Source: Chitinophagaceae bacterium C216 (lineage in GTDB: Bacteria; Bacteroidota; Bacteroidia; Chitinophagales; Chitinophagaceae). Taken from it: DNA of 64,000 nucleotides. Position 1 is the stretch's first letter. Every line of letters begins with the position of its first letter. The notes below the pieces were generated by a model. The model did no database searches. It saw nothing but the letters and a program-made list of their open reading frames with translations, and was not told the DNA's origin. A program made the position numbers and the translations under genes. Below are positions 14,883 through 56,121 of this stretch, piece by piece. The stretch is from assembly GCA_028485475.2 (NCBI GenBank), contig CP144143.1, positions 2,046,001-2,110,000 on the forward strand, written 5' to 3'.

Positions 14883-15920
14883 GTGAAGCAACTATCGATT
14901 AAAGATATCGCCAAGCTGGCAGGAGTTGTGCCTTCAACAGTATCATTCGTGATCAATGGAAAAGAGAAGGAAATGCGCATTAGCGATGAGCTTGCCGCCA
15001 AAATTAGAAAAATTATTGCCGAAACAGGCTATGTTCCCAACCGTTCCGCGGCCAGTTTGCGTACCGGTAAAACGCATGTGATTGGCCTCATTGTAGAAGA
15101 CATATCCAATGTGTTCTTCTCGCTTCTGGCTAAAGCAGTAGAGGATATTGCTTATAAAGATGGCTACAGAGTTGTATATTGTAGTACGGAGAATGAGGAT
15201 AAAAAAGGCGTAGAATTAATTAGGGTGTTGCATAAGCAAGTAGATGGGTTTATTGTGACACCGTCTATTGGAATGCGGGATGAAATACTCAAGCTAAAAA
15301 AAATCAAAAAACCCGTTGTATTGCTTGACCGTTATTTCCCTGATGCGAATATCCCTTATGTGCTGGTGGATAATAAAAAAGCTATTGCACAGGGAGTAGA
15401 CTTACTGATTTCACGTGAGTATAAAAATATTGCTTTTGTTGTAACAGCGCTTGATCAAGTACAAATGCAGGAACGTTTAGAGGCATTTCGACAATGTATA
15501 AAAAAGCATACGGGTTGTATGCCAAAGTATGTATTAAAGCTTCCTTTTTCCACAATGGAAAACGCTTATGAGAAAGGTATAAAAAGTTTTTTGGAACAAC
15601 ATCCTGAGATTGATGCTATCTTTTTTGCAACAAACTATCTTACTATCGATGGATTGAGAGCCTTGCAGGCGCTGAAATGGAAAATCCCTGATAGGGTAGG
15701 TGTGTTGTCTTTTGATGATCATGCGATTTTTAAATTGTATATGCCTTCTATTACCGCCATTAATCAGCCTATTGTAGACATCGCTCGTAAAGGTATTGAG
15801 TTGCTGATTGCGCAAATGAATAATCAGGCAGATCGTAATAACAGTAAGGTTTTATTGGAAGCAGAACTAATTTGCAGAGATTCTTTAAGAAAGCCTTCTA
15901 AGAAAACAAAATTGTCGTAA
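14883..15920 (+). CDS. LacI-family transcriptional regulator of locus A
   Basis: DNA-binding regulator of the LacI/GalR family, 345 residues. The helix-turn-helix is at residues 3-24 (SIKDIAKLAGVVPSTVSFVI), followed by the hinge (YVPNRSAASLRTGKTHVIGLI) and a periplasmic-binding-protein-like sensor domain. The start is GTG at 14883. It lies just upstream of locus A. A strong CG-centred palindrome at 16025-16042, the operator type LacI proteins use, sits between it and susC. I infer that it controls the GGCAAAAACGATTTTGCC-type sites. The inducer is probably a sugar released from the locus A glycan. Confidence 0.92.
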   Translation: MKQLSIKDIAKLAGVVPSTVSFVINGKEKEMRISDELAAKIRKIIAETGYVPNRSAASLRTGKTHVIGLIVEDISNVFFSLLAKAVEDIAYKDGYRVVYCSTENEDKKGVELIRVLHKQVDGFIVTPSIGMRDEILKLKKIKKPVVLLDRYFPDANIPYVLVDNKKAIAQGVDLLISREYKNIAFVVTALDQVQMQERLEAFRQCIKKHTGCMPKYVLKLPFSTMENAYEKGIKSFLEQHPEIDAIFFATNYLTIDGLRALQALKWKIPDRVGVLSFDDHAIFKLYMPSITAINQPIVDIARKGIELLIAQMNNQADRNNSKVLLEAELICRDSLRKPSKKTKLS

Positions 15921-15990
15921 GACAATATTATGAGAAACAATCCCCAATGCATTTTCACTTAAGAAAATTTCTGTAAAGGAAAAATTAAAA

Positions 15991-16021
15991 TTTTGTTTTT
16001 TGAAAACTTTTATTACTTTTA
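15991..16021 (+). promoter_or_regulatory. Promoter of locus A susC operon
   Basis: TTTTG (15991-15995), an 18-base spacer, then TACTTTTA (16014-16021; seven of eight match TAnnTTTG). The layout is the same as at 26949-26979, and the operator begins 4 bases after the -7 box. Confidence 0.65.
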
Positions 16022-16024
16022 CTA

Positions 16025-16042
16025 GGCAAAAACGATTTTGCC
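16025..16042 (+). promoter_or_regulatory. LacI-type operator, class A, upstream of susC
   Basis: GGCAAAAACGATTTTGCC: perfect 7-base arms around the centre ACGA. The central CG is typical for LacI-family operators. It covers the presumed transcription start of the susC operon. Seventeen of its 18 bases recur at 26981-26998. Confidence 0.8.
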
Positions 16043-16272: not shown

Positions 16273-19200
16273 ATGCACTTTTTAATCAAACAGAAGCTGG
16301 CGCTCGCTTTGCTAGTGTCATTATTTGTACCTCTGTTCCTTATTGCTCAGGTATCTGATTCAGAATCGATCGTTGTTTCAGGTACTGTAAGGGATAAGTT
16401 AAATGCGGTTATGTCAGGTGTTACCATTCAAAACCTGCGAACCGGTGTCACCAGCCTTACCGATGCTAACGGGTATTATGAAATAGCTGCATCAAAAGGC
16501 GATACACTTACTGCCTCGCATGTGGGTTATATTACGCATCGCTGGGTTTTTTCGGAGAGAATTGTAGAAAACATTACGCTCGAAGCTGTGGCGGGAAGTT
16601 TGGAAGATGTAGTAGTGGTGGGTTATGGCCAGCAGAAGAAAATTAGTCTGGTAGGTGCTCAGTCTACAGTAAAGGCAGAAGAGCTGAAACATCCTGTAGC
16701 AAATCTCAGTACCATGCTGTCTGGTCGTATCGCTGGGTTGGTAGGCGTACAACGTTCGGGTTTGCCGGGTAGTAACTCTGCCGATATCTGGATTAGGGGT
16801 ATTCAGACATTTGGTGGAAATGCTAGTGGTGCACTGGTGATCATCGATGGTATTCAGGGTCGTGATTTGAACAGTGTGGATCCGGAAGACATCTCGTCCT
16901 TTACCATCCTCAAGGATGCGGCGGCTACTGCCGTATATGGATCTTTAGGTGCGAATGGTGTAATTCTTATCAACACTAAGAGAGGTAAATCTGGTAAGGT
17001 AAACCTTATGTTTAACTATAACGAAGGTATTACCATGTTTACCAAAGTGCAAAAGATGGCCGATGCTAAGACCTATATGGAGCTTAAGAATGAGGCTATG
17101 ATTGCGGCAGGATATGCACCTCAATTTTCTCAGGCTTATATCGATAGCACCTTATCCGGAACAGCCAATCCATACGTTTATCCCAATGTGGATTGGTTAG
17201 ATCTTCTGTTTAAGGATGTAGCTCCTAATCGTCGATTTAACTTTAGCGCATCGGGTGGTACGGAAAACACACGCTTTTATACTTCGCTTGCTTACTATTC
17301 AGAAGATGCGTTGTTGAGAACCGATCCTGCAGTAACCTACGATGCCAATACGCGTTTTCAACGATACAATTTTACTTCCAATATCGATATGAATTGGACG
17401 AAGACTACTAAGTTCTATCTGGGCATTAGTGGTTATATAACCGATTATAATCAACCAGGAGCCGGAGCTACACAAGCATTTAGTCAGGCAATGAATGCAA
17501 GCCCCGTGTTCTATCCGCCTATGTACCCCGGAAACTTAGTAGCGGGTATTGCTTATGGTAGTACTCCTTCTCCTAACCCTTGGGCTGCAGTAACGCAAAC
17601 CGGATATACCAATAGGTTTACCTCTAAGCTGAACTCTAATGCCAGCATTACACAGGATTTGAGTTTTTGGGTAAAAGGTTTGTCGGTGAATGCCATGTAC
17701 TCATTCGACTTATATAATGAGTCTTCCCATAGCAGAAGACGATCTAGAACGCTTTATTATCTGAATCAGGCTCAGCCTTATAAGCCGGACGGCAGCCTGA
17801 ATCTGGAACAAATGCTTACGGGTTCTGATAACTTAGACTTTAGTACGTCTAACTATGCTAACCGCCAGTTTACCTTACAGGCACAGGCGATTTACGATAG
17901 ACATTTTAATGATCACCATATTTATTCCATGCTGGTGTATAATCAGTTGAGTCAGATTTATCCATTTACCAGCTCTTGGACTGACTTTATTCCTCACCGT
18001 CAGCAAAACTATGCCGGGAAAGCTACCTATTCTTTCCGTCAGAAGTATTTTGCCGAATTCAACGTGGGGTATAACGGTTCGGAAGACTATGCACCTTCAC
18101 GCAGATTTGGTTTCTTCCCTTCTGTGGGTGTGGGTTGGGTATTATCTAAAGAGAAATTCTTCGAACCTTTATCTAATATTTTCCAGTTCTTCAAAATCCG
18201 TTATTCGAATGGTATTGCCGGAGCCCCCGGAACCGGATTGCGTTTCGGTTATTTAACGCTGATTACCACAAATGCACGTGGTATTACTTATGGTAAACCT
18301 GGTAGCAGTACAAGTGTTTCAGGTATTAATATTTCTCAATATGGAGCAGATGTAAGCTGGGCTACTTCACATACTCAGGATTTAGGTTTGGAATTTAATA
18401 TTCTGAACAACAAGCTTTCGTTTGTTCTTGATTATTTCAGATCTCATCGTACTGGTGTATTCCTTACCCGCGCTGATTTTCCGGGATATGCAGGCTTGCA
18501 ATACAATCCTATTGGAAACTATGGTATTGTAGATGCATCAGGTTTCGATGGTACTGTTGAATTGCAACCCATTCAGTTGGGTCTTAAATCGACAATATCC
18601 TTTAGAGGAACTTTCTCTTACAATAGAGACCGACTGGTGGAAAACAGACAGGCGCCTTATGCGGACCCTTATCAAGAAAGAAGAGGGCAGAACATTCTGG
18701 CACAGTTTGGTTATGTAGCTGAAGGAATTTTCCAAAGTCAGGAAGAAATTGATAATAGCCCCGATCAGTCCTATTTGGGTAATCCCAGAGTGGGGGACTT
18801 AAAGTATAAAGATTTGAACGGCGATGGTGTGATCAATGCTTATGACCAGACCAAGATTAGCCGTGGCGATGTTCCCGATCTGGTATATGGTTTTGGATTT
18901 AATTTCACCTTAGGACGTTTTTATCTGAGTGCCTTTTTCCAAGGAATTAGTGGTGCCTACCGAACCTTAAGCGGTATTGCACGTGCACCTTTCTCTGGTG
19001 ATGGAAACGATGGTAACGTATATGCTATCGTAACCGACAGATGGACAGAAGATAATCCAAAGGCTAATCCATTCTATCCTCGTCTGGCTTTTGGTAGCGT
19101 GGCTTCTGCCAATAACAATGTGCCTAGTACCTGGTGGGTGCGGGATATTGATTTCATAAGATTAAAAACTGTGGATTTTGGATATAATTTACCTAATGGA

Positions 19201-19365
19201 ACTTTAAAGAGCATCGGTTTGAAAAATGCACGCATCTACTTTTCCGGTGTAAATCTGCTTTACTGGAGCAAGTTTAAGCTGTGGGATCCGGAAATGAATA
19301 CCGGTGACGGTAATACTTATCCCAACACAAGAAACTTATCATTAGGTATACAGGCTAATTTCTAA
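16273..19365 (+). CDS. SusC/RagA-type TonB-linked outer membrane protein (locus A)
   Basis: TonB-dependent barrel that imports oligosaccharides together with its SusD lid. At 1030 residues it has the SusC length. Signal peptide about 1-26 (ending FLIAQ); carboxypeptidase-like domain about 33-110; the SusC signature LEDVVVVGYGQQKK near residue 113. The plug runs about 125-235 (ISSFTILKDAAATAVYGSLGANGVILINTK), then the barrel, ending NLSLGIQANF with a terminal Phe. It is the first structural gene of locus A, under the promoter and operator at 15991-16042, and is followed within a few bases by susD. Confidence 0.95.
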   Translation: MHFLIKQKLALALLVSLFVPLFLIAQVSDSESIVVSGTVRDKLNAVMSGVTIQNLRTGVTSLTDANGYYEIAASKGDTLTASHVGYITHRWVFSERIVENITLEAVAGSLEDVVVVGYGQQKKISLVGAQSTVKAEELKHPVANLSTMLSGRIAGLVGVQRSGLPGSNSADIWIRGIQTFGGNASGALVIIDGIQGRDLNSVDPEDISSFTILKDAAATAVYGSLGANGVILINTKRGKSGKVNLMFNYNEGITMFTKVQKMADAKTYMELKNEAMIAAGYAPQFSQAYIDSTLSGTANPYVYPNVDWLDLLFKDVAPNRRFNFSASGGTENTRFYTSLAYYSEDALLRTDPAVTYDANTRFQRYNFTSNIDMNWTKTTKFYLGISGYITDYNQPGAGATQAFSQAMNASPVFYPPMYPGNLVAGIAYGSTPSPNPWAAVTQTGYTNRFTSKLNSNASITQDLSFWVKGLSVNAMYSFDLYNESSHSRRRSRTLYYLNQAQPYKPDGSLNLEQMLTGSDNLDFSTSNYANRQFTLQAQAIYDRHFNDHHIYSMLVYNQLSQIYPFTSSWTDFIPHRQQNYAGKATYSFRQKYFAEFNVGYNGSEDYAPSRRFGFFPSVGVGWVLSKEKFFEPLSNIFQFFKIRYSNGIAGAPGTGLRFGYLTLITTNARGITYGKPGSSTSVSGINISQYGADVSWATSHTQDLGLEFNILNNKLSFVLDYFRSHRTGVFLTRADFPGYAGLQYNPIGNYGIVDASGFDGTVELQPIQLGLKSTISFRGTFSYNRDRLVENRQAPYADPYQERRGQNILAQFGYVAEGIFQSQEEIDNSPDQSYLGNPRVGDLKYKDLNGDGVINAYDQTKISRGDVPDLVYGFGFNFTLGRFYLSAFFQGISGAYRTLSGIARAPFSGDGNDGNVYAIVTDRWTEDNPKANPFYPRLAFGSVASANNNVPSTWWVRDIDFIRLKTVDFGYNLPNGTLKSIGLKNARIYFSGVNLLYWSKFKLWDPEMNTGDGNTYPNTRNLSLGIQANF

Positions 19366-19387
19366 TACATTGAAAATATTATATAAA

Positions 19388-21238: not shown

Positions 21239-21283
21239 TAATCAGATTATTCAACAAAGTCTGAAGCGTAAAAAACAAAGAAC

Positions 21284-22264
21284 ATGAAATCAAATAACTA
21301 TATAGAAAAGGCCAGACTGTTTAATATAAAAGGTTTGACAGCCTTGGCATTAGCCACATCTCTTTTGTCGGCCTGTGTTAAAAATGATGATCTAGTTTCT
21401 CCTCAGGAAGGAACCATATATATGCCACAAGCATATCAAGATAAATCCGTTATGACGCTCTATAAAATGGATGATCCGCAGAAAGTTACATTCGGAGCTT
21501 ATTATGCGGGGTTCAATGGAGCACCAAGCGATATTACAGTAAAGTTCGAAGTGGATCCTGCCTATGTAGATTGGTACAACGAACTTAACTCTCATTTGAG
21601 TTACAGATATCATCTGTTTCCCGATAGTACTTATAATCTCACTGGCTTGGAAACCGTTATCAAAGCAGGTAAGAAAACTTCCGAACCACTTGCTATAGAG
21701 ATTGAAGGCAAGAAACTCCAGTTTGGATACAAGTACATGCTTCCCATAAGAATTGTAAGTGTATCTGATGGAACAACTGATAGTTCACTATCCGTTACTT
21801 ATTTCAGGCTGGATACTTTGCTGACACGAGTAAAAGACTTTACTTCTGAGGCTACTTTAACAGTAAGTGATGAAAACCGCAACGGGGCCGGTTCGGCAGA
21901 GGGGTCTCCTAAGCTGGTTGATGGTAGTGTGGATACTAAGTTCTTGAGTTTTGATTATCACTCTGAATTCTGGATGCAGCTTTCATTCAGCGAACCGAAG
22001 TTCATTGATGCCTATGATATGACCTCTGCTAATGATGCTGTAGAACGCGATCCACGCGACTGGCAACTATTGGGATCTAATGATGGCACTAACTGGACGG
22101 TGCTGGATACAAGAATAGATGAAGCTTTCCCTGACAGGAAGTTTACGCGTCGCTTCAATATTGAAAACCCCGGTAGTTACAGACATTATCGATTGAAGGT
22201 AACTCGTAATATGGGGGCTACATTATTCCAGATGGCCGAATGGCGTTTGTTGCAGTTCTATTAA
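21284..22264 (+). CDS. DUF1735 / discoidin-domain surface lipoprotein
   Basis: A 326-residue lipoprotein (lipid Cys in LLSACVKND near residue 31) that fills the place of a surface glycan-binding protein after SusD. An N-terminal DUF1735-type domain covers about 40-175. A C-terminal F5/8 type C (discoidin)-like domain covers about 185-326, with KLVDGSVDTKF, YDMTSANDAVERDPRDWQLLGSNDG and YRHYRLKVTRN. Such proteins bind polysaccharide at the cell surface. It is the last gene before a strong terminator, so susC-susD-this gene form one operon. Confidence 0.85.
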   Translation: MKSNNYIEKARLFNIKGLTALALATSLLSACVKNDDLVSPQEGTIYMPQAYQDKSVMTLYKMDDPQKVTFGAYYAGFNGAPSDITVKFEVDPAYVDWYNELNSHLSYRYHLFPDSTYNLTGLETVIKAGKKTSEPLAIEIEGKKLQFGYKYMLPIRIVSVSDGTTDSSLSVTYFRLDTLLTRVKDFTSEATLTVSDENRNGAGSAEGSPKLVDGSVDTKFLSFDYHSEFWMQLSFSEPKFIDAYDMTSANDAVERDPRDWQLLGSNDGTNWTVLDTRIDEAFPDRKFTRRFNIENPGSYRHYRLKVTRNMGATLFQMAEWRLLQFY

Positions 22265-22289
22265 TAGATTCCCGATCATGAATGGAAGG

Positions 22290-22370: not shown

Positions 22371-24518
22371 ATGAAAAAACTCATTTTAAATATCCTAGCT
22401 CTTATTCTTTGGACAAGCAGTTTTGCTCAAGAAAAAACAGCATTTCAGATAGCTGCTCCCTGGAGCGAAGTTTATGATGTACGCTCCGATATTGCTATTG
22501 TCTACGGTGTTAATGATGCGGGTGGCCATTTTGAAGAAAGGGTTAAAGGCTGGCGCGATAAGGGGTACCAGGTTCACTTTATGACCGGTGTAGCCTGGGG
22601 ACAGTATCAGGATTATTTCTTAGGGCATTATGATGGCAAGAATCATTTGGATGAAGGCCAGGTCAATCGTAACGGTGATACGATATGGCATGGGAAAAAT
22701 GTTCCGTATATCGTTCCTTCTGCAGGGTTTATTGCCTATTTAAAAACACATCTAAAGCGGGCTATTGATGCCGGGGTGACGGCTATACATCTCGAGGAGC
22801 CGGAATTTTGGGCTCGTGCTGGTTACAGTGAAGCTTTTAAAAAGGAATGGAAGAAGCACTATGGATTTGATTGGATGCCTCAGCATGAATCTCCTAATGC
22901 AACTTGGCTATCATCCAAACTTAAGTACCAGCTTTACTATAATGCTTTGAAAGAATGCTTTGCATTTGTAAAAGAATATAGTAAAAAGCAGGGTAAAGAG
23001 GTTGCTTGTTATGTGCCCACCCATTCCTTATTGAATTACTCTGCTTGGAGTATTGTAAGTCCCGAAGCAAGTTTAGCTTCTATAAAAGATGTGGATGGTT
23101 ATATCGCCCAGGTATGGACCGGAACTTCAAGAGAACCCGTATATTTTAATGGGGTTAATAGGGAAAGAGTGTTTGAGAATGCTTTTCTGGAGTATGGAAG
23201 TATGATATCTATGATTCAGCCCACGGGAAAGAAAATTTTCCTTTTAACAGATCCCATTGAAGATAGATCTCGCACATGGGATGATTATAAGAGAAACTAT
23301 CAGGCTACTTTTACTGCTAAACTCTTATATCCCTCGGTTGCAGATTATGAAGTAATGCCTTGGCCTGATCGTATTTATCGAGGAAGATTTCCGGTAGAAA
23401 ATAGCAATGAAAGGCAACCTATCTCACCTGATTATGCAACACAGATGCAGGTAATGGTGAATGCGCTGAACACAATGCCCATTTCGACTAATAAAGTCAG
23501 CGGAAGTCAGGGGATAGGAGTGTTGGTATCCAACTCTATGATGTTTCAGCGATTCCCTACCCACGAAGGATACGAAGATCCTCAATTGTCTAATCTTTAT
23601 GGAATGGCTATGCCGCTTCTCAAAAGAGGAGTGCCGGTTGAGATTGTGCATATGGAAAATCTAACGCATGAAAATGCATTAAAAGACATTCGAGTGTTGA
23701 TCATGAGCTATTCCAATATGAAGCCTTTGAGCGAAACTTATCATAAAGCTTTAGCAGATTGGGTGAAGCAGGGTGGTATATTGGTGTATTATGGACGAGA
23801 CAATGATCCTTATCAACGTGTGAACGATTGGTGGAATACTAAAGGGAAGAAGTATAAAGCTCCGTCAGAAGATTTATTTCACAAATTGGGACTCTCCCAT
23901 GAAAATCATTTTTCAGGACAGTTTATAAAAATTGGAAAGGGCATGGTGTGTGTGAAACGTCAAGATCCCAAGGAATTGGTGATGCTGGCAGGAGGCGATC
24001 AGGAATATATCGCTTTAGTAAAAGAAGCCTATGAAAAATATGCGGGCAACGCAGAACTAATACTAAAAAATCATTTTACAGTTCAAAGGGGCGCGTACAT
24101 TATTGCTGCGGTAATGGATGAGTATGATGAGCAATCATTGAAGATTAAAGGACCTGTAATTGATTTGTTTAATCCTATGCTGCCCGTACTGGATACTAAG
24201 GAAGTAGCTCCGGGCGAACAGGCGTTTCTGCTGAATCTAAACATGATTCGCTCCGATGCCCCACAAGTATTGGCTTCAGCATCGCGTATTTATGAGGAAA
24301 CGACCACGAAAAATAGCTACTCGTTTATAGCTAAAAGCCCGTCAAATACTATTAATGCACTGCGAATAAAACTTCCTCGAAAACCTACATCTGTATCAGC
24401 ATTGAAAGGTGCTGAGGTTCTTAATTTAATTACGAACGCATGGGATGCCCGTTCCCAAACTTTATTGCTACGTCTTCCTAATTATAGCGAAGGCGTGAAG
24501 ATTACGCTAGCTTGGTAA
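22371..24518 (+). CDS. Secreted glycosidase-like protein of unassigned family
   Basis: I do not recognise a named family with certainty. The 715 residues begin with a signal peptide (ending TSSFAQ, about 19). About residues 30-340 look like a TIM-barrel glycosidase: alternating strands and helices, with an acidic strand end AGVTAIHLEEPEFW near 142. About residues 375-500 resemble the flavodoxin-like beta-galactosidase trimerisation domain (GIGVLVSNSMMFQRFP, LLKRGVPVEIVHMENL, LADWVKQGGILVYYG). A C-terminal beta domain follows. It precedes GH92 by about 54 bp in locus A, which supports a role in trimming the mannose-containing glycan (inference). Confidence 0.6.
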   Translation: MKKLILNILALILWTSSFAQEKTAFQIAAPWSEVYDVRSDIAIVYGVNDAGGHFEERVKGWRDKGYQVHFMTGVAWGQYQDYFLGHYDGKNHLDEGQVNRNGDTIWHGKNVPYIVPSAGFIAYLKTHLKRAIDAGVTAIHLEEPEFWARAGYSEAFKKEWKKHYGFDWMPQHESPNATWLSSKLKYQLYYNALKECFAFVKEYSKKQGKEVACYVPTHSLLNYSAWSIVSPEASLASIKDVDGYIAQVWTGTSREPVYFNGVNRERVFENAFLEYGSMISMIQPTGKKIFLLTDPIEDRSRTWDDYKRNYQATFTAKLLYPSVADYEVMPWPDRIYRGRFPVENSNERQPISPDYATQMQVMVNALNTMPISTNKVSGSQGIGVLVSNSMMFQRFPTHEGYEDPQLSNLYGMAMPLLKRGVPVEIVHMENLTHENALKDIRVLIMSYSNMKPLSETYHKALADWVKQGGILVYYGRDNDPYQRVNDWWNTKGKKYKAPSEDLFHKLGLSHENHFSGQFIKIGKGMVCVKRQDPKELVMLAGGDQEYIALVKEAYEKYAGNAELILKNHFTVQRGAYIIAAVMDEYDEQSLKIKGPVIDLFNPMLPVLDTKEVAPGEQAFLLNLNMIRSDAPQVLASASRIYEETTTKNSYSFIAKSPSNTINALRIKLPRKPTSVSALKGAEVLNLITNAWDARSQTLLLRLPNYSEGVKITLAW

Positions 24519-26980: not shown

Positions 26981-26998
26981 GGCAAAAACGATTTTGCT
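26981..26998 (+). promoter_or_regulatory. LacI-type operator, class A, upstream of GH125
   Basis: GGCAAAAACGATTTTGCT, identical to the susC operator except for the last base. It starts 2 bases after the -7 box, as expected for repression at the transcription start. Confidence 0.8.
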
Positions 26999-31760: not shown

Positions 31761-31770
31761 ACTATATTTG
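31740..31770 (+). promoter_or_regulatory. Promoter of the first GH172 operon
   Basis: TTG (31740-31742), 20-base spacer, TATATTTG (31763-31770, exact TAnnTTTG). The class B operator overlaps the end of the -7 box. Confidence 0.7.
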
Positions 31771-31787
31771 CTTAATCGAATAAGCAA
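31768..31787 (+). promoter_or_regulatory. LacI-type operator, class B, upstream of first GH172
   Basis: TTGCTTAATCGAATAAGCAA: 7-base perfect arms around a CG-centred core, with only one mismatched pair over 20 bases. Overlaps the -7 box. Confidence 0.8.
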
Positions 31788-38540: not shown

Positions 38541-38690
38541 TGGAAAATATATTTCTAATTATTGCCATATAGTATGTTGCAAGATTGCAACTGCTTTAAA
38601 ACAAACTGTATGAAAAATATATTCTTAGCTTTCTGTCTTATAATATGTTTAGTATGTTGCAAGATTGCAACTGCCCAAAACCAGACTGTA
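38541..38690 (+). repeat. Imperfect tandem duplication spanning the susC signal-peptide start
   Basis: A 24-base block is repeated exactly at 38571-38594 and 38651-38674, 80 bases apart. Similarity extends on both sides: ATGGAAAATATATTTCTA at 38540 against ATGAAAAATATATTCTTA at 38610, and AAACTGTA against AGACTGTA at the far ends. The upstream copy looks like a decayed signal-peptide start that stops at TAG after ten codons. Each block contains the palindrome GTTGCAAGATTGCAAC. Confidence 0.7.
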
Positions 38691-43643: not shown

Positions 43644-43678
43644 CGTGTAGATATATACTATTAAAAAATTTGAAGTCG

Positions 43679-47001: not shown

Positions 47002-47095
47002 TGTCTTCTAAGACGAGTGAATATATTTATCTCAGCACTATTGTTACTATGCTTTTGGGTAGAATTATTTATAATTGTGTAACAAATTTTTATTA

Positions 47096-48180: not shown

Positions 48181-48190
48181 GGCAATTTTG

Positions 48191-48198
48191 TATTTTTG
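48191..48198 (+). promoter_or_regulatory. Promoter -7 box of the GH172-fucI operon
   Basis: TATTTTTG matches TAnnTTTG exactly and lies 16 bases before the ATG at 48215. The -33 region is covered by the class B operator and lacks a clear TTG. Confidence 0.6.
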
Positions 48199-48214
48199 TT
48201 TAGAAAGTATCGAT

Positions 48215-49381
48215 ATGAAAAAAAATTTACTACTACTACTTGTCATTTTCGCCACGATTGCTGCTAAGGCACAGCAAGGCAAGTTCAACGGCCTTGATAT
48301 GAACATGGGTAATCTGTCTAAATTGTCAGACGCCAAGACCCGTTCCATTAGCCCTGAAAACTTTACCGGTGAAAAAGGGAGAGGTGGTATGGCCGATCCT
48401 GCAAAGGATAAGGGAAAACGAAATGTAGCCAATGCCGCCCACGAAGCAAGAGATTTAGGAGTGGGTTGGAAAGTGAACCCTTTCATTATTATTGAACCGG
48501 GAGAAACCTTTACGATGGCTGATATTCAGGGACCTGGTGCTATTCAGCATATCTGGATGACGCCTACAGGCAATCTAAACTTTTCTATTCTTCGCGTATA
48601 CTATGATGATGAAAAAGATCCTTCGGTAGAGTGTCCTATTGGCCCATTCTTTGCCTCGGCGTGGAATGAGTTCTCACCTCTGAATTCACTAGCAATGACG
48701 GTAAACCCGGGAAGCGCATTTAACAGTTATTGGAAGATGCCTTTCAGAAAACGCATCAGAATTACAATGGAGAATATTGATAGCCAGCCAATGCGCCTAT
48801 ATTATCAGATTACCTATGCATTGACTGAGGTAGGCGAGGATGAGGCTTACTTCCATGCACAATATCGCCGCAGCAAGCCCAATATGAGCTCTCTGCATAC
48901 CATTGTTGATGGAATTAAAGGTAAAGGACATTATGTAGGTACCTATATGGGTGTTGGTGTCAATAATAACGGCTGGTGGGGCGAAGGCGAAATTAAGTTT
49001 TTCATGGATGGCGATAAGGATTATGCCACTATCGTAGGAACCGGTACCGAAGATTATTTCTGCGGCTCTTACAATTTTGAAAATAAACGTACCCGTCAGT
49101 ATCAGGAGTTTTCTACTCCCTATGCCGGATTGCATCAGGTAATACGTCCCGACGGATTATATGCCTCTCAGATGCGTTTTGGAATGTACCGTTGGCACAT
49201 TATGGATCCTATTCGCTTTGAAAAAGATTTAAAAGTGACCATTCAGGATTTGGGATGGCGATCCGGAGGTCGTTATCTACCGCAAAACTCTGATATCATT
49301 ACTGTGGCATATTGGTATCAAACTGAGCCTCATAATAAATTCCCTAAACTTCCCAGTGCAGATGTGTTAGAAGTAAACTAA
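48215..49381 (+). CDS. GH172 (DUF2961) glycosidase, short form 2
   Basis: Third GH172-type protein, 388 residues from the ATG at 48215 (MKKNLLLLLVIFATIAAKAQ signal). An in-frame TTG at 48188 lies inside the promoter and is rejected. Landmarks: ARDLGVGWKVNPFIIIEPGE near residue 79, GAIQHIWMTPTG near 109, GPFFASAWNEFSPLNS, GKGHYVGTYMGV near 236, and VGTGTEDYFCGSYNFE near 274. In other copies the residue before GTG is His; here it is Val. It heads an operon with the following lipoprotein and fucI. Confidence 0.9.
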   Translation: MKKNLLLLLVIFATIAAKAQQGKFNGLDMNMGNLSKLSDAKTRSISPENFTGEKGRGGMADPAKDKGKRNVANAAHEARDLGVGWKVNPFIIIEPGETFTMADIQGPGAIQHIWMTPTGNLNFSILRVYYDDEKDPSVECPIGPFFASAWNEFSPLNSLAMTVNPGSAFNSYWKMPFRKRIRITMENIDSQPMRLYYQITYALTEVGEDEAYFHAQYRRSKPNMSSLHTIVDGIKGKGHYVGTYMGVGVNNNGWWGEGEIKFFMDGDKDYATIVGTGTEDYFCGSYNFENKRTRQYQEFSTPYAGLHQVIRPDGLYASQMRFGMYRWHIMDPIRFEKDLKVTIQDLGWRSGGRYLPQNSDIITVAYWYQTEPHNKFPKLPSADVLEVN

Positions 49382-49396
49382 TAAAACTTTACATCC

Positions 49397-50647
49397 ATGA
49401 AATATTTTTCTTTAACGATTGCGTTGGCCGGTTGCTTAATAACGGCATGCAACAGCGGCACAAACAATAATGATTCATCAGCTAATACCACAGATAATAC
49501 AATGGAAAGTTATGCCCAAGGCAGTTTTGGATACGATGTCCAATTTTTGCAGCAGCAAGATAGCTCGCTTATTATACTTAAAAGTGAAGATGGATTAAGT
49601 CAGGTCATCGTATCGCCAAAGTATCAGGCAAAAGTATTCACTTCAACTGCCGATGGTTTGAGTGGTAAGAGCTTCGGATGGGTGAATTACAAAGCTTTCG
49701 ACGGACCACTGGATGAGCATATGAATGCTTACGGTGGCGAGGATAGATTATGGCTGGGACCCGAAGGCGGTGTATTTTCACTTTATTTTAAGCCCGGGGC
49801 TAAAATGGAGTTTGCCAATTGGAAAACTCCTGCACCCATTGATACGGAGGCTTGGACATTGGTGTCTGCCGATGGTGTTTCTGTTGTCATGAGTAAGGAT
49901 ATGGAGCTGCTGAACTATGCAGGAACTACTTTAAAGATTAAAGCAGATCGTAGTGTCACGTTAATCGGTACTGCAGATATTCATTCCGATTTAGGCATCA
50001 CGCTGGACAACTCAGTAAAAGCGGTAGCGTTCAGAACCGAGAATAGTCTTACTAATGCGGGTCCAAACCCCTGGGACGAGCAAAGTGGAGCTCCTTGCAT
50101 GTGGAGCTTGGATATGTTTGCTCCTTCTGAGGGTTGCACTATTGTTATTCCTTATAATGATAAAGCCACAGGTAAAGTAGCTACTACTGATTATTTCGGA
50201 GAAATAGCAGCGGATAGAATTACGTATAAAGATGGCATCCTTTTCTTTAAAGCTGATGGTAAATCACGAGGTAAATTAGGAATTCCACCTGCACGTGTAA
50301 AAGATGTTGCCGGTAGCTACGATGCCACCCATAATGTACTCACTATCGTAAAATTTGATATTCATCCTTCCGGAAAATACTTGAATCAAGAATGGCGTAC
50401 CGACCGCGAGCCTTTTAGCGGTGATGCCATGAATGCTTATAATGATGGCCCCCTGGAAGATGGCAATCAGATGGGGCCTTTTTATGAAATTGAAAGTGTT
50501 TCACCTGCAGCATTCCTGAAACCCGGCGAAAAGCAAGTGCATAAACATAATGTGTATCATTTTATCGGCAATAAAACCGCTTTAAGCGAAATCGCTAAGA
50601 AAGTGTTGGGCGTTTCGGTTGAAGACATTGAAAAGATATTTAAGTAG
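49397..50647 (+). CDS. Lipoprotein of unknown function (DUF6786-like)
   Basis: A 416-residue lipoprotein (Cys near 18, ITACNSGTNNND). It resembles a family found beside sugar isomerases in Bacteroidota, which I believe is DUF6786; I am not certain of the name. It looks all-beta, with YGGEDRLWLGPEGGVFSLYF near residue 114 and WSLDMFAPSEGCTIVIPY near 236, suggestive of a mutarotase-like sandwich. If so it could open or epimerise the sugar handled by the next gene, fucI. It is 15 bases after the GH172 gene. Confidence 0.6.
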   Translation: MKYFSLTIALAGCLITACNSGTNNNDSSANTTDNTMESYAQGSFGYDVQFLQQQDSSLIILKSEDGLSQVIVSPKYQAKVFTSTADGLSGKSFGWVNYKAFDGPLDEHMNAYGGEDRLWLGPEGGVFSLYFKPGAKMEFANWKTPAPIDTEAWTLVSADGVSVVMSKDMELLNYAGTTLKIKADRSVTLIGTADIHSDLGITLDNSVKAVAFRTENSLTNAGPNPWDEQSGAPCMWSLDMFAPSEGCTIVIPYNDKATGKVATTDYFGEIAADRITYKDGILFFKADGKSRGKLGIPPARVKDVAGSYDATHNVLTIVKFDIHPSGKYLNQEWRTDREPFSGDAMNAYNDGPLEDGNQMGPFYEIESVSPAAFLKPGEKQVHKHNVYHFIGNKTALSEIAKKVLGVSVEDIEKIFK

Positions 50648-50691: not shown

Positions 50692-52479
50692 ATGGCGAAA
50701 AAGCAAAAGTTACAGAATAACAAATATCCGAGAATTGGTATTCGTCCTATTATTGATGGACGTTTAGGAGGTATTAGAGAATCGCTAGAGGCGACTACTA
50801 TGGCTATGGCAAAGTCCGTGGCCGAATTATATACCCGTGAGCTCAGATATCCTGATGGTACTCCCGTAGAATGTGTGATTGCCGATACTACCATTGGAGG
50901 TGTAAAAGAAGCTGCAGCGTGTGCGGAAAAATTTGAGGCCAATAACGTGGGTGTTTCTTTATCGGTAACGCCTTGCTGGTGTTATGGTTCAGAAACAATG
51001 GACATGAATCCTTATATACCTAAAGCAATATGGGGATTTAATGGTACGGAGCGTCCGGGTGCTGTTTATCTTGCAGCCACACTGGCAGCACATAATCAAA
51101 AAGGACTTCCTTGTTTTGGTATATATGGAAAAGATGTGCAGGATATGGGTGATACTACAATCCCTGCAGATGTGGAAGCTAAACTATTGAATTTTGCAAG
51201 AGCAGGGCTCGCTGTTGCTATCATGCGCGGGAAGTCCTATCTGGCCATAGGTTCTGTGTCCATGGGAATTGCTGGCTCTATCGTAGATCCCCAGTTTTTC
51301 CAGGATTATCTGGGTATGCGCAATGAATATGTAGATTCCACAGAAGTATTACGTAGGATTCAGTTGGGTATTTATGATCATGATGAGTTCAAGCGCGCGA
51401 TGGTATGGGTAAAGAAATATTGTAAAGAAGGAAAAGATCTGAATAGAAAAGAAAAGGTAAAATCACGCCGTGAAAAGGATAAAGACTGGGAGTTTGTTGT
51501 GAAGATGACTATGATTATCCGAGACCTGATGGTCGGAAATCCAAAGCTGGCTAAGATGGGATATGAAGAGGAAGCATTAGGTCATAACGCTATTGTTTCC
51601 GGATTCCAAGGGCAACGTCAGTGGACCGATTTCTTACCGGATGGTGATTTTTCCGAGGCTTTGTTGAATTCTTCATTCGATTGGAACGGCATTCGTAATC
51701 CATATATAGTAGCAACCGAAAATGATTGTTATAACGGGGTTTCTATGCTGTTTAATTATTTGCTCACCAATACAGCACAGATTTTTGCTGATGTACGTAC
51801 CTATTGGAGTCCGGATGCTACAGAGCGCGTGACAGGGTGGAGACCCGATGGTATAGCAGCAGAAGGGTTTATTCATTTAATAAACTCGGGTTCGGCTTCA
51901 CTGGATGGTACAGGCCGGCAGTCCAAAGAGGGTAAACCGGTAATGAAACCTTTCTGGGAAATTACACAAAAAGAGGTGAAAGCTTGTCTAGACGCTACAG
52001 AATGGAGCCCTTCCAATCGTGATTACATGCGTGGTGGAGGTTTTTCATCTACTTTTTTAACCAGAGGTGGTATGCCGGTTACTATGTGTCGTTTGAATTT
52101 GATAAAAGGCCTAGGGCCAGTGCTGCAAATTGCAGAAGGTTATACCATTGACTTGCCCAAGCATGTACATGATATATTGAACAGACGTACAGATCCTATA
52201 TGGCCTACCACATGGTTTGTACCTAATACTACTGGTAAAGGGCCATTTAAAGATGTATATTCTGTAATGGCTAATTGGGGTGCGAATCACGGCGCTATTA
52301 GTTATGGTCATATTGGTGATCAGTTGATCACACTTGCCTCTATGCTTCGTATTCCTGTGGCTATGCACAATGTAGATGAGGGACGTATTTTCAGGCCTTC
52401 TGCATGGGGTGCATTTGGTATGGATCCTGAGGGATCGGACTATAGAGCTTGTTCTGTATATGGACCTTTGTATAAGTAG
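50692..52479 (+). CDS. fucI: L-fucose / D-arabinose isomerase
   Basis: Cytoplasmic Mn-dependent aldose-ketose isomerase converting L-fucose to L-fuculose; the same enzyme family accepts D-arabinose, giving D-ribulose. The 595 residues match the family (about 590). Features: [24 protein letters not shown] at the start, [15 protein letters not shown] near 63, [25 protein letters not shown] near 199, and [29 protein letters not shown] near 527 with the conserved histidine. No fuculokinase or aldolase gene is in the window. It shares an operon with GH172 and the preceding lipoprotein under the class B operator at 48166. Confidence 0.96.
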
Positions 52480-52574
52480 GCAAATTATCTGAGGGCTTGG
52501 AAGTAGCTTGTATCATTATAAATTCAAAAGTGATATTAGCCAAGAAATCTGTATTTTACTGCCCCTCAATATCA

Positions 52575-52591
52575 AAACGATTTTTAAATAT
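52575..52591 (+). promoter_or_regulatory. Possible class A operator variant at the fucP start
   Basis: AAACGATTTTTAAATAT, identical to 29417-29433. It touches the ATG at 52590, so binding here would interfere with elongation or initiation of this gene. Confidence 0.4.
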
Positions 52592-53894
52592 GTCAATGAA
52601 AAAACAATCACTGTTTGTAAAGGACGGTATTAATTACGCCGCCCCGTTTGCTGCCATTAGTTCTTTGTTCTTTTTGTGGGGTGTAGCCCATGGTTTGTTG
52701 GATACACTGGACAAGAACTTTCAGGACATGCTGCATCTGAAAAAATGGCAATCTAGTTTTATTCAGTTTTCATTATACGGGGCTTACTTTGGGATGGCCA
52801 TTCCTGCGGGTTTGTTCATGAAGAAGTACGGATATAAGAAAGGGGTGATTTTTGGGTTGCTTCTTTTTGCTTTTGGAGCATTATTGGCTGCAGCTACAGC
52901 ACCTGCACAGTCTTTTGTGCTTTTTTTATTGTGCCTTTTAATTATCGGTTCGGGACTTACTACATTGGAAACAGCAGCGAACCCTTATACAACCAAATTA
53001 GGACCGCCCGAAACAGCAGAGCGTCGTATTAACTTCTCCCAATCATTTAATGGTTTAGCATGGGTGGTAGGGCCATTGATTGCGTTGTATGTTTACGGTA
53101 ATCAAAGTCATGTTGAGGGTGAAAAAATGATGTCGATCGTATTGCCCTTTGCACTGATAGGCCTAGCTGTGTTGCTGGTGGCTTTTATTTTCATGAGATT
53201 GAAGTTGCCTGAAATTACAGAAGAGGACGAGCTGGCAGCTCATGGAGGAGGACATGGTATTTCGGCAGTACCTGCTGCAGAGACAGACGCCGATATCAAT
53301 GATCCTTCCAATCCCCGTTATGTGAGCAAAAAGCCACTGTGGCAAAATCGGCATTTTAAGTTGGGCTTTATTGCTCAAGCATGTTATGTGGCGGCGCAAA
53401 CAGGGGTATTCAGCTATCTGATAAACTTCGTTACCGATCATGATATGCATCCACGCTTTGATGTAAAATATGGGCCGTATTTTTTGTCCATTGGATTTGC
53501 ATTATTTATGATCGGACGGATATCAGGTAGTGCGATGATGAAATATGTGAAGCCTACAAAATTATTAGCACTATATGCACTTGCAGTGAGTGTGTTATTG
53601 CCTATAGTGTCTGCTAAATTGGGTTGGACTTCTTTGATCGCATTATATGGTGTTTTCTTCTTTATGTCAATTATGTTCCCTACTATTTTTGCGCTAGCTA
53701 TTAAAGGGTTGGGAACAAAAACTAAGCAAGGGGCATCTTTCCTTGTGATGGCTGTGGCAGGAGGTGCCGTATTTCCCCCAATAATGGGTTTGGTAGCAGA
53801 TACTTACGGTATGGCTGCAGGTTTTTTGGTGCCTATTCCGCTTTTCCTGTTTATACTGTATTATGCAATAAAGGGGTATAAGGTATTGGCATAA
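52590..53894 (+). CDS. fucP: FucP-type sugar/H+ symporter (major facilitator superfamily)
   Basis: Inner-membrane MFS transporter of the FucP/NarK-like sugar symporter group, 434 residues and about 12 membrane helices. Start at 52590 or 52596 (MSMKKQSLFVKDG); an upstream in-frame ATG at 52497 would add a polar, unlikely extension. FLWGVAHGLLDTLDKNFQDML near residue 25 is typical of FucP, as are LTTLETAANPYTTKLGP near 125 and NFSQSFNGLAWVVGP. E. coli FucP takes L-fucose and D-arabinose; glucose/galactose symporters are close relatives, so the substrate is inferred from the adjacent fucI. Confidence 0.88.
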   Translation: MSMKKQSLFVKDGINYAAPFAAISSLFFLWGVAHGLLDTLDKNFQDMLHLKKWQSSFIQFSLYGAYFGMAIPAGLFMKKYGYKKGVIFGLLLFAFGALLAAATAPAQSFVLFLLCLLIIGSGLTTLETAANPYTTKLGPPETAERRINFSQSFNGLAWVVGPLIALYVYGNQSHVEGEKMMSIVLPFALIGLAVLLVAFIFMRLKLPEITEEDELAAHGGGHGISAVPAAETDADINDPSNPRYVSKKPLWQNRHFKLGFIAQACYVAAQTGVFSYLINFVTDHDMHPRFDVKYGPYFLSIGFALFMIGRISGSAMMKYVKPTKLLALYALAVSVLLPIVSAKLGWTSLIALYGVFFFMSIMFPTIFALAIKGLGTKTKQGASFLVMAVAGGAVFPPIMGLVADTYGMAAGFLVPIPLFLFILYYAIKGYKVLA

Positions 53895-54048
53895 TCCACA
53901 ATCTAATAATTCAACCGTCTTAGGATGGTTTATACTTTTTTTAGGTAGTAACCTATAGGCTGTATTATTTATTCATATTTCATTTTCAGGATACTGAAAA
54001 TAAGCCTTTGCCATGTCTAATTCTATCTATGATATTATCACTACGCGC

Positions 54049-56121
54049 ATGTACTTAAAAGTGTTTAGAATACTTGTTATTGTTTTTTTGATTCCATATA
54101 CTTTGCTTGCCCAGCAAAAATCGGATATCCCCTCGGGGCTTAAGCGATTTGTTGCTTCAGTAAGCGCTTCAAAAATTGGAGAAGCTGTAGCTGAAATAGA
54201 TTTTAAAAGATTATCTAAGGATCTGTATTATGGGCGTGTACGTTGGAACCTTTCTGCCAGCGTGCAGCAGAATGCTGTAGAAGTGACGGTGATTCCAGCT
54301 TTTCAGCCTAATTTTCATTGGGCACCCCATTTAACACCTACAGATAATCATATTATTCCACAACATGTATTTCGGGCACCGGCGTTGATTGTTGCTGATA
54401 ACAGTTATACCTTTTCTCTCATTCCGGATTTAGATTTGATTAAAAAGAACAGTCTTCCCTGGATGATGGACCTCAATGCCAGAGATAATCGTCTGATGTT
54501 GGGACTGGGTAAATCCAAAATTACTGATCATGTATTGTATGAAAGGGAAATTGGGATGACGATCCCGTCAGGCGAAATGGTTATAGGTTTTTATCTATTG
54601 GTATCCGATAAGGCGGCTGCTATTCATAATCCATTTCATCGTACGATAAATTTTATGTGGACCCAATGGGGCGAGCCTTTATATAAAGTAGGGGAACCTT
54701 TGCACCAAAAGAGTATGGAGCCTTATGTGAAGCATACTTATGAGTGGGCGTTTAAAAACTGGAGAGATGCAGTATGGCAGGAATTTGATTTGAATGGTAA
54801 AAGGGTGGGAGCTCCGGTATTTATTGTGAATACCACACAAAGCCCCAATTATCCCGGACAAGTGAATGAGCGTGAATTTCGTTCAATATGGAATCAGGCT
54901 TGGTTTAACTCCCTACGCTCCGCACAGGGATTATATCGATATGCGCTACGAACACATAATGACACCTTAAAGCAATATGCATTAATGACCAAAGAACTGG
55001 CATTAGCTTTCCCGCAAACCAATGGTCTGTTTAAAAGCGTTATTGCTGTAGAGATGGAGCAGGTAGAAATAGATGGTAAAAAGGTTAATCGTTCCAAAAG
55101 CTGGGACACTCGCTACTTTGGCAATTCTAATCGTAATCCCTATACTTGGGATGCACGCTTATCTCCTTATCATATTGCCGACATGAGCTTTACAGCTTAT
55201 TGGATGCTGGTATGGTATAATGAGCTTGAACAAGACCACCGGCTATTATCGTATGCAAAAAATTATGCAGATGCTTTAATTCAACTTCAGGATGCCGAAG
55301 GCTTTTTCCCTGCATGGATGAATCTAGAAACATTACAACCGATGGAGCACCTACAACAGTCTCCAGAAACTAGCGTTTCAGTAACATTTTTATCCGCCAT
55401 GTATAAGGCTACGGGTGATGTACGTTATCTGCAGGCTGCAGAAAGAGCAATGAAGGCGGTAATTACTAAGATAATCCCACAAGGGCAATGGGAAGATTTT
55501 GAAACATACTGGTCGTGCAGTCGTGTAGGAAGTGATAAGTGGGTAGGTAAGAAGGTAGCGCGCAACAATATGTTCAAGCAAAATACTTTTTGTATTTATT
55601 GGACTGCGGAGGCTTTATTGGAGCTATATAAATTAACTCGTAAGAAGGAATATCTCCGATGGGGCCAACGTACACTAGATGAACTGTTGATGGCTCAGGC
55701 TATATGGCAACCGCCTTTTATAGCGATACGGAGTCTGGGAGGATTTGGTGTAATGAATGCTGATGCCGAATGGAACGACTCTAGGCAAAGTCTTTTTGCT
55801 GGATTGATTATTGAGTACGGAAAAGTACAGAAGAACAAGCAATATATACAACGTGGATTAGCAGCGTTGCGTGCTTCTTTTACCATGATGTATACACCCC
55901 TTAATCCTTCTACCATGAAGCAATGGCAGGCGCGATGGCCATTCTTCGGAGAGAAAGATTATGGTTTTATGATGGAAAATTACGGGCATGACGGGGTGAC
56001 TAATGATGCCGGCTTGGGCATTGGCGAATTTACCATTTACGACTGGGGTAATGGCGCTGCGGCCGAAGCTTATAACCGGCTTGTGGACAAATATGGTCGT
56101 CGCTTTGTAGAGGAAAATTAG
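54049..56121 (+). CDS. Exported protein of unassigned family, probably helical-barrel glycosidase-like
   Basis: About 690 residues with signal peptide (MYLKVFRILVIVFLIPYTLLAQQ); an ATG at 54013 is an alternative start. The first about 220 residues are beta-rich. The rest looks like an (alpha/alpha) barrel: HIADMSFTAYWMLVWYNELE, LQDAEGFFPAWMNLETLQ, ETSVSVTFLSAMYKATGDVRYLQAAERAMKAV and YWTAEALLELYKLTRKKEYLRWG. I do not recognise a numbered family. Its place after fucI and fucP suggests it releases the sugar they use (inference). Its stop overlaps that of the convergent nhaA. Confidence 0.6.
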   Translation: MYLKVFRILVIVFLIPYTLLAQQKSDIPSGLKRFVASVSASKIGEAVAEIDFKRLSKDLYYGRVRWNLSASVQQNAVEVTVIPAFQPNFHWAPHLTPTDNHIIPQHVFRAPALIVADNSYTFSLIPDLDLIKKNSLPWMMDLNARDNRLMLGLGKSKITDHVLYEREIGMTIPSGEMVIGFYLLVSDKAAAIHNPFHRTINFMWTQWGEPLYKVGEPLHQKSMEPYVKHTYEWAFKNWRDAVWQEFDLNGKRVGAPVFIVNTTQSPNYPGQVNEREFRSIWNQAWFNSLRSAQGLYRYALRTHNDTLKQYALMTKELALAFPQTNGLFKSVIAVEMEQVEIDGKKVNRSKSWDTRYFGNSNRNPYTWDARLSPYHIADMSFTAYWMLVWYNELEQDHRLLSYAKNYADALIQLQDAEGFFPAWMNLETLQPMEHLQQSPETSVSVTFLSAMYKATGDVRYLQAAERAMKAVITKIIPQGQWEDFETYWSCSRVGSDKWVGKKVARNNMFKQNTFCIYWTAEALLELYKLTRKKEYLRWGQRTLDELLMAQAIWQPPFIAIRSLGGFGVMNADAEWNDSRQSLFAGLIIEYGKVQKNKQYIQRGLAALRASFTMMYTPLNPSTMKQWQARWPFFGEKDYGFMMENYGHDGVTNDAGLGIGEFTIYDWGNGAAAEAYNRLVDKYGRRFVEEN

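What the first reader, a model, noticed from the sequence alone, without database searches (positions are those of the whole stretch)
14883..56121. Candidate system for an arabinose- and mannose-containing actinobacterial glycan
The region combines three GH172 proteins, GH26, two GH92, GH125, a GH43/GH32-like propeller, a phosphoesterase, a metallopeptidase, and FucI/FucP homologues. GH172 includes exo-D-arabinofuranosidases found in Bacteroidota that degrade mycobacterial arabinan. E. coli FucI and FucP also handle D-arabinose. GH125 plus GH92 would dismantle an alpha-1,6-mannan backbone with side mannoses. This is the composition of lipoarabinomannan (mannan core, D-arabinan, phosphate anchor). 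No fucosidase of GH29/GH95 was recognised, which weakens the plain L-fucose explanation.
Basis: partly seen in the sequence, partly recalled or inferred. Interest (0 to 1): 0.82.

Follow-up and report, generated by a model that had tools for sequence, protein, structure and literature searches.

The report
Gene set for degrading mycobacterial-type arabinomannan
A soil-type bacterium carries two neighbouring gene blocks, one for alpha-mannan and one for the rare sugar chain D-arabinan, which together fit the make-up of lipoarabinomannan from mycobacteria and their relatives, and some related bacteria carry the same enzymes in single gene strings.

Summary
The gene list is real. The window lies in a 3.34-Mb genome, inferred to be Niabella. 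The 41-kb run holds two adjacent LacI/SusCD loci. The left one (14883-31715) is an alpha-mannan set: an unnamed 715-aa family, GH92, GH125, a BSP peptidase and GH92. The right one (about 31768-56121) is a D-arabinan set: one GH172 of each of the three kinds of the Dysgonomonas gadei D-arabinan locus PUL42, plus FucI, a FucP-like porter and DUF6786. GH172a matches the solved exo-alpha-D-arabinofuranosidase ExoMA1 (E 5e-119) and keeps its Asn specificity residue.

Relatives strengthen the lipoarabinomannan (LAM) reading. At the orthologous place in N. ginsengisoli one string holds GH172b, GH183 endo-D-arabinanase, GH92, GH125, GH92 and GH172a. Bacteroides oleiciplenus has GH125-GH172b-GH183-GH92 in a row, and B. 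muris has GH125 inside its D-arabinan locus.

Three results limit it. The two halves carry different conserved operators. No canonical GH183, GH116 or GH76 was found in the genome. The mannan set occurs without nearby GH172 in other genera.

D-arabinan specificity is about 0.9 likely; one arabinomannan as shared target about 0.6. Activity is untested.

The parts
14883..15920 (+). LacI1, LacI-type regulator of the left half
   Evidence: operator A lies between its orthologues and SusC1 in 5 of the 7 non-own Niabella stretches L154-L160
16026..16041 (.). operator A, palindrome GCAAAAACGATTTTGC
16273..19365 (+). SusC1
   Evidence: TIGR04056 894.6 bits
19370..21238 (+). SusD1 lipoprotein
21284..22264 (+). 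BT_3987-like N-terminal (recalled as DUF1735) + F5/8C surface glycan-binding lipoprotein
22371..24518 (+). U715: secreted protein of an unnamed family, beside alpha-mannosidases in other genera and beside GH172/GH183 in Niabella
24573..26843 (+). GH92 (a)
26982..26997 (.). second copy of operator A, before GH125
27142..28563 (+). GH125 exo-alpha-1,6-mannosidase candidate
28667..29377 (+). BSP-family peptidase
29442..31715 (+). GH92 (b)
31768..31787 (.). operator B, palindrome TTGCTTAATCGAATAAGCAA
31877..33811 (+). GH172b, 73.5 kDa, size like DgGH172b
33833..34882 (+). GH26
34954..36489 (+). secreted ADP-ribosylglycohydrolase-like protein
36765..36784 (.). operator B variant (2 mismatches), before FGE and SusC2
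36982..38475 (+). FGE-sulfatase-type domain protein
38562..41858 (+). SusC2
   Evidence: TIGR04056 840.9 bits
41898..43643 (+). SusD2
43637..44647 (+). GH43/GH32-type five-bladed propeller candidate
   Evidence: relative beside GH172c in Bacteroides rodentium
44698..45879 (+). GH172c, DgGH172c type
   Evidence: 8ah3 E 4.5e-169
46012..47001 (+). metallophosphoesterase
47075..48142 (+). LacI2, LacI-type regulator of the right half
   Evidence: operator B lies between its orthologues and GH172a in relatives
48188..49381 (+). GH172a, ExoMA1/DgGH172a type exo-alpha-D-arabinofuranosidase
49397..50647 (+). DUF6786 lipoprotein, frequent neighbour of GH172a
50692..52479 (+). FucI, acting here as D-arabinose isomerase (inferred)
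52497..53894 (+). FucP-like sugar/H+ symporter
54013..56121 (+). U702: beta-sandwich + (alpha/alpha) barrel protein, found in D-arabinan loci of Dysgonomonas, Bacteroides and Sphingobacterium

Best explanation
This is a pair of adjacent polysaccharide-utilization loci that together use an arabinomannan of the LAM type. Proposed steps: SusCD1 and SusCD2 import oligosaccharides at the outer membrane (inferred). In the periplasm GH172a, b and c remove alpha-D-arabinofuranose from the arabinan (by family and active site; activity inferred). GH92 enzymes remove side mannoses, GH125 trims the alpha-1,6-mannan core, and U715 opens or finishes the mannan end (U715 role inferred only). D-arabinose enters by the FucP-like porter; FucI turns it into D-ribulose, and a ribulokinase encoded elsewhere makes D-ribulose-5-phosphate (inferred; some relatives carry a ribulokinase-type kinase inside the cluster). 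LacI1 on operator A controls the mannan half and LacI2 on operator B the arabinan half, so each sugar part can switch on its own enzymes (sites shown, binding inferred).
For: GH172a to 8ic8 (ExoMA1) E 5.2e-119 against 2.3e-33 for the fructosidase 7v1v. It has 'SYN' where ExoMA1 has 'AWN' with the Asn253 that blocks fructose (residue from PMC10509167); Asn in 72 and Asp in 7 of 79 relatives read, of 80 loci. GH172c to 8ah3 E 4.5e-169, 566 bits against 198 for 7v1v. GH172b is 73,550 Da; DgGH172b is 146,512/2 Da (PMC10115798). N. ginsengisoli, with the same left flank: operator-A-like site, GH172b, SusCD, U715, GH183, DUF1735, GH92a, GH125, GH92b, GH172a, DUF6786. B. oleiciplenus: GH97-GH125-GH172b-GH183-GH92, with GH125 67% and GH92b 60% identical to the window's. 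B. muris: GH116-GH97-GH125-GH172c-SusCD-GH172b. GH38 beside GH183/GH172b in B. oleiciplenus and after the GH172b-ADPRH-PHP run in B. rodentium. GH125 within 5 kb of a GH172 in 4 of 15 genes, 0.105 expected if placed evenly. Operator sites conserved at LacI1|SusC1 and LacI2|GH172a in relatives. No FucA found in the genome; no GH76, as a yeast-mannan locus would need.
Against: The two halves have different operators, so they may be two separate loci for two glycans. In 33 non-Niabella genomes with a long U715 match none has GH172 within the fetched stretch (up to 20 kb, some cut by contig ends), and 8 of 33 have U715 with GH92/GH125 at 60% identity or more: the mannan set often lives alone. No canonical GH183, GH116 or GH76 was found in this genome, so the endo-acting steps are unaccounted for. 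The co-location control weakens to P 0.022 (5 kb) or 0.084 (10 kb) if PUL genes clump tenfold; G000 and G400 are orthologous places; L008 (G400) was chosen after its GH92/GH125 had been seen; five of the nine comparison genomes (G394, G398, G399, G401, G402) show no GH125 or GH38 near GH172. GH26, FGE and ADPRH have no place in the LAM scheme. No expression or enzyme data.
Confidence: 0.6

Rival explanations
1. Two unrelated neighbours: the left locus takes fungal or N-glycan alpha-mannan, the right locus takes D-arabinan of any origin (mycobacterial arabinogalactan, pilin or O-antigen glycans). They sit together by chance or because gene blocks were inserted side by side.
For: Separate LacI regulators and operators with the border at about 31.7 kb. 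U715-GH92/GH125 blocks without GH172 in the stretch in 8 of 33 other-genus genomes. The BSP peptidase in this block (also L149 and L162) fits mannoprotein.
Against: In N. ginsengisoli both enzyme sets form one string with LacI1 upstream. The same families are interleaved in B. oleiciplenus and B. muris. In Niabella G277 (L155) operator A precedes SusCD-GH183-U715-GH172b, so LacI1 probably controls D-arabinan enzymes there. No GH76 for long fungal mannan.
Confidence: 0.3
2. An L-fucose or fucosylated-glycan locus.
For: FucI and FucP-like porter; two GH29 elsewhere in the genome.
Against: No fucosidase among the window proteins scanned. The two class-II aldolases found are AraD and a RhaD fusion, and none of the six FGGY kinases passes the fuculokinase model. 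FucI stands near GH172a in 18 of 80 loci.
Confidence: 0.04
3. A fructan or difructose-anhydride locus using GH172 as an alpha-D-fructofuranosidase, with the GH43/GH32-type protein as a fructosidase.
For: GH172 includes the difructose anhydride I synthase/hydrolase (PMC8605356, passages read); the 43637 protein hits Glyco_hydro_32N with 53.9 bits.
Against: GH172a and GH172c score far higher to D-arabinofuranosidases than to 7v1v. GH172a has Asn where alphaFFase1 has Gly299. FucI is not a fructan enzyme.
Confidence: 0.03

Closest known systems
Dysgonomonas gadei PUL42 (D-arabinan; PMC10115798)
   Same: Three GH172 of the same three kinds and FucI; in the Dysgonomonas relative G394 also LacI2, SusCD, FucP-like porter, DUF6786 and U702.
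   Different: PUL42 has GH183 and a putative GH116; this locus has neither, and adds GH92/GH125/U715/BSP and GH26/ADPRH/FGE/GH43-32. The full gene list of PUL42 is in a figure that I could not see.
Microbacterium arabinogalactanolyticum D-arabinan cluster (PMC10509167)
   Same: ExoMA1-type GH172; isomerase and kinase route to D-ribulose-5-phosphate.
   Different: Gram-positive cluster with ABC transporter, GH183 and GH116; no mannosidases mentioned in the sections and passages read.
B. thetaiotaomicron yeast alpha-mannan loci (Cuskin 2015; recalled, and cited inside PMC11233589)
   Same: GH92 and GH125 with SusCD.
   Different: No GH76 in this genome; GH99 not tested; D-arabinan enzymes alongside.
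LamH, mycobacterial GH76 that cuts LM/LAM (PMC11233589, passages read)
   Same: Same proposed substrate.
   Different: A mycobacterial enzyme acting on its own envelope, not a Bacteroidota uptake locus.

Membership tests
GH172 | DUF2961 domain | tested here: met
   three proteins over the Pfam cut-off, 186.8, 277.1 and 299.5 bits
GH172 | catalytic Glu pair (E233/E254 of DgGH172c) in W-x-GE and GTGTED contexts | tested here: met
   GH172a WWGEGE and GTGTED; GH172c WYGEGD and GTGTED; GH172b EYFEGDD and GTGSED
GH172 exo-alpha-D-arabinofuranosidase (ExoMA1 type) | Asn at the place of ExoMA1 Asn253 / alphaFFase1 Gly299 | tested here: met
   GH172a only, by alignment; GH172c has Cys, as 8ah3
GH172 exo-alpha-D-arabinofuranosidase (ExoMA1 type) | release of D-arabinose from AG/LAM | not testable with these tools
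   needs enzyme assay
PUL42-type D-arabinan locus | GH172 a, b and c kinds + FucI | tested here: met
   for b by size and remote similarity only
PUL42-type D-arabinan locus | GH183 endo-D-arabinanase | tested here: not met
   none in the locus; the one DUF4185 hit in the genome is partial (62.7 bits) and lacks the Asp of the FFGDT motif
PUL42-type D-arabinan locus | GH116 exo-beta-D-arabinofuranosidase | tested here: not met
   best genome hit 20.3 bits against a 26.3 cut-off
Yeast alpha-mannan locus | GH76 endo-alpha-1,6-mannanase | tested here: not met
   0 matches in the genome
L-fucose catabolic locus | fucosidase plus FucK and FucA | tested here: not met
   two GH29 lie far from the locus; GH95 not sought genome-wide
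LAM-degrading locus (proposed kind) | D-arabinan and alpha-mannan enzymes under common control | tested here: inconclusive
   one string in N. ginsengisoli and B. oleiciplenus; two operators in the window

The most novel reading that the evidence does not exclude
A LAM-utilization system that does without the known D-arabinan and mannan depolymerases (no canonical GH183, GH116 or GH76 found in the genome) and uses undescribed families instead. U715 would act at the mannan/anchor end. The GH43/32-type propeller, GH26, U702 or the secreted ADP-ribosylglycohydrolase-fold protein would act as D-arabinofuranoside-cleaving enzymes; the last belongs to a fold whose known members cut alpha-D-ribofuranosidic bonds (recalled). 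Bacteroides rodentium shows the same set (GH26, GH43/32, ADPRH; no GH183 found by BLAST in its 57-kb contig).
Probability: 0.35. Interest if true: 0.8.

Novelty: new variant of a known kind. Interest (0 to 1): 0.62.

Why it matters
LAM and arabinomannan are major surface glycans of mycobacteria and their kin. D-arabinan loci are known since 2023, but the listings of the searches made here (with 15 of 65 papers listed, 83, 92, 102, 109; open-licence library only) showed no paper on a Bacteroidota locus joining D-arabinan and alpha-mannan enzymes. If true, it gives a defined enzyme kit for whole-LAM breakdown, points to several unnamed families (U715, U702, DUF6786, a secreted ADPRH-like protein) as likely glycan enzymes, and says where mycobacterial glycans may go in soil and gut.

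Tried and rejected
U702 replaces GH116: within 10 kb of GH172a, 7 loci had U702 only, 12 GH116 only and 1 both, of 80. Wider stretches showed both together in the Dysgonomonas relative G394 and in B. muris G396, so the apparent exclusion is at least partly due to short flanks and was dropped.

U715 by structure: only 3 sequences were allowed in the alignment; the model is poor (pLDDT 49.6) and was not searched. PDB profile hits (Piwi and others) are weak and local; Pfam hints DUF4350, GLMA_2nd and Glyco_hydro_42M are all above E 0.01. A GH42-like build (TIM barrel, then a glutaminase-like domain) is a guess.

U702 by structure: pLDDT 72, pTM 0.80; hits are a polysaccharide lyase, GH76, epimerases, GH116 and GH127, with TM at most 0.38 on the query in the 50 rows listed. 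Fold class only.

Own DUF4185 as the missing GH183: rejected on the catalytic Asp. Fucose and fructan readings: see rivals. The ADPRH-like protein has no PDB relative by sequence. Rfam and tRNA scans: nothing. The first motif count (66 of 80) used too narrow a pattern and is replaced.
Full report
What is there. The genes from 14883 to 56121 are on the + strand with mostly short gaps; the larger ones are 352, 298, 161, 492 and 132 bases. The window is bases 2046001-2110000 of a one-contig 3.34-Mb genome. The genus is inferred to be Niabella: genome G358, called same genus, holds the same DNA as L005, whose record is titled Niabella sp. BIN29.

Two halves. An identical 16-base palindrome, GCAAAAACGATTTTGC, lies before SusC1 (16026) and before GH125 (26982). 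In shuffled sequence 1.1 matches at up to 3 mismatches are expected for the whole window, against 5 found, 4 of which are these two sites read on both strands. A different 20-base palindrome lies before GH172b (31768), with a 2-mismatch copy at 36765 before FGE/SusC2; the shuffles gave none. No such copy was found before LacI2 or GH172a in the window at up to 3 mismatches. In relatives the first motif (up to 2 mismatches) lies between LacI1 and SusC1 in 5 of the 7 non-own Niabella stretches L154-L160 and, in N. ginsengisoli, between LacI1 and GH172b. The second (up to 4 mismatches) lies between LacI2 and GH172a or at the start of the GH172a frame in 9 loci, 8 distinct ones since L005 and L157 are the same DNA, and also before GH172b in N. 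drilacis. Of 20 loci scanned the six U715 loci from other genera (L161, L163, L166, L149, L162, L138) had neither motif. Over 12 Niabella loci 7 and 12 sites were found (one of the 12 counted twice, through L005/L157), against 0-1 in each of 6 shuffles. So LacI1 probably reads operator A and LacI2 operator B (inferred), and the border runs at about 31.7 kb.

The D-arabinan half. GH172a matches ExoMA1 (8ic8) with E 5.2e-119, the entries 8ah3 and 4kq7 with 4e-39 and 1e-37, and alphaFFase1 with 2.3e-33. Shimokawa et al. (PMC10509167, sections 9 and 10 read, and passages) show that Asn253 of ExoMA1 stands where alphaFFase1 has Gly299 and blocks fructose; GH172a has Asn there, as do 72 of 79 relatives read in 80 loci, the other 7 having Asp. 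GH172c matches 8ah3 with E 4.5e-169. GH172b is remote from all solved GH172 but has the size of DgGH172b (73.5 against 73.3 kDa; and PMC10115798, of which Results part 1, section 13, the Discussion and passages were read) and 39-42% identity to proteins in Dysgonomonas and Bacteroides D-arabinan loci. The catalytic Glu contexts are kept in all three.

The D-arabinose route. FucI passes its curated model; the porter falls just short of the FucP model. [quoted passage not shown] Of 80 GH172a loci (many cut short), 28 have DUF6786, 25 a FucP-like porter, 18 FucI and 9 a ribulokinase-type kinase nearby (two kinases were named by PRK04123). The window lacks that kinase; the genome's AraB, in an araBAD operon at 1.21 Mb, is 48-63% identical to the kinases of those 9 loci. 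The only class-II aldolases found are AraD and a RhaD-dehydrogenase fusion, so no dedicated FucA was found.

The mannan half. U715 has no named family. In the same taxonomic family 44 of 394 genomes matched, 41 (own included) over most of its length. I fetched stretches of up to 20 kb round all 40 non-own long matches, some cut by contig ends. In Niabella 6 of 7 have a GH172 in the stretch. In other genera 0 of 33 do, while 8 of 33 have GH92 and/or GH125 at 60% identity or more and 3 more have distant GH92. U715 therefore keeps company with mannosidases in one set of species and with D-arabinan enzymes in another. That is what an enzyme of a mixed polymer would do, but a generic helper could do it too.

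One-string relatives. N. ginsengisoli has the same left flank as the window (metallophosphoesterase, epimerase, TonB receptor, DUF4249, LacI1) followed by GH172b, SusCD, U715, GH183, DUF1735, GH92a, GH125, GH92b, GH172a and DUF6786; several genes are split by stops in that assembly. Niabella G277 has SusCD-GH183-U715-GH172b-LacI2-GH172a-DUF6786-FucI-FucP and then SusCD...GH116-GH183, with no GH92 or GH125 in the stretches read. B. oleiciplenus has SusCD...GH97-GH125-GH172b-GH183-GH92b in a row, and elsewhere GH172b-GH183-GH38. B. muris has GH183-U702-GH116-GH97-GH125-GH172c-SusCD-GH172b. B. rodentium has kinase-GH172a-U702-GH26-GH43/32-GH172c-GH172b-ADPRH-PHP-GH38-FGE, the nearest match seen to the right half of the window; no GH183 was found by BLAST in its 57-kb contig. 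The Dysgonomonas relative G394 has the D-arabinan set without a mannosidase in the stretches read.

Control. In ten genomes searched, 4 of 15 GH125 genes lie within 5 kb of a GH172 (0.105 expected if evenly placed, P 4.6e-6), and 2 of 14 GH38 genes (0.09 expected, P 0.0038). If glycan genes clump tenfold the P values rise to 0.022 and 0.23; at 10 kb they are 2.6e-5 and 0.0089 evenly placed, 0.084 and 0.41 clumped. The GH172 places for nine genomes come from a search with GH172b alone and may miss some. Two of the four GH125 cases are orthologous places, one of them the window itself, and G400 was picked knowing its content; the B. muris and B. oleiciplenus cases were not. GH92 is too common in the three Bacteroides genomes (7, 14 and 28 matches, fragments included) to be informative there.

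What is missing. The one DUF4185 protein found (3.142 Mb, in another SusCD locus beside a GH92) aligns poorly and lacks the Asp of the FFGDT motif, which I take as Asp51 of EndoMA1 (residue from PMC10509167). GH116 above cut-off, GH76 and GH38 were not found; GH99 was not tested. So either unnamed families do the endo steps, or the organism eats ends and fragments released by others.

Mechanism and verdict. D-arabinan use by the right half: about 0.9. A single arabinomannan as shared target: about 0.6. Two neighbours for two glycans: about 0.3. No paper listed joins GH92 or GH125 with LAM breakdown in Bacteroidota: searches (15 of 65 papers listed), 83, 92, 102 and 109, listings only. In PMC10115798 GH92 and GH125 occur 0 times. 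The library holds only open-licence papers.

Noticed in passing
L098:2768-16139 (own genome about 3.133-3.146 Mb): Another SusCD locus with the DUF4185-like protein that lacks the catalytic Asp, an MFS sugar porter, a GH92 with F5/8C domain and a ROK protein; possibly a second mannan locus or a degenerate arabinan one.
   Followed up: partly
L193:4713-15086 and L194:4401-6355 (Niabella ginsengisoli): GH92a, GH172b, DUF6786 and the FucP gene are split by stop codons or frame changes, from assembly error or real decay.
   Followed up: no
window 34954-36489: Secreted ADP-ribosylglycohydrolase-like protein, 60% identical to one in the B. rodentium D-arabinan locus, keeping Asp-rich motifs (YDDIYMD, GQDSDC).
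   Followed up: partly
L195:17584-19629, L190:8462-10471, L200:16341-18332: A GH97 about 80% alike sits in three Bacteroides D-arabinan/mannan loci; its role there is unknown.
   Followed up: no
PDB 8ah3: The entry's molecule name says GH127 although the sequence is a GH172 (DG02479).
   Followed up: no
window 9386-14792: Upstream metallophosphoesterase, epimerase-type protein, TonB receptor and DUF4249 lipoprotein, conserved beside the locus in N. ginsengisoli; function not studied.
   Followed up: no
L095:8842-16750 (own genome about 1.21 Mb): L-arabinose operon (endo-arabinanase-like, AraB, AraD, AraA, Na+ symporter); its AraB is the likeliest D-ribulose kinase.
   Followed up: yes
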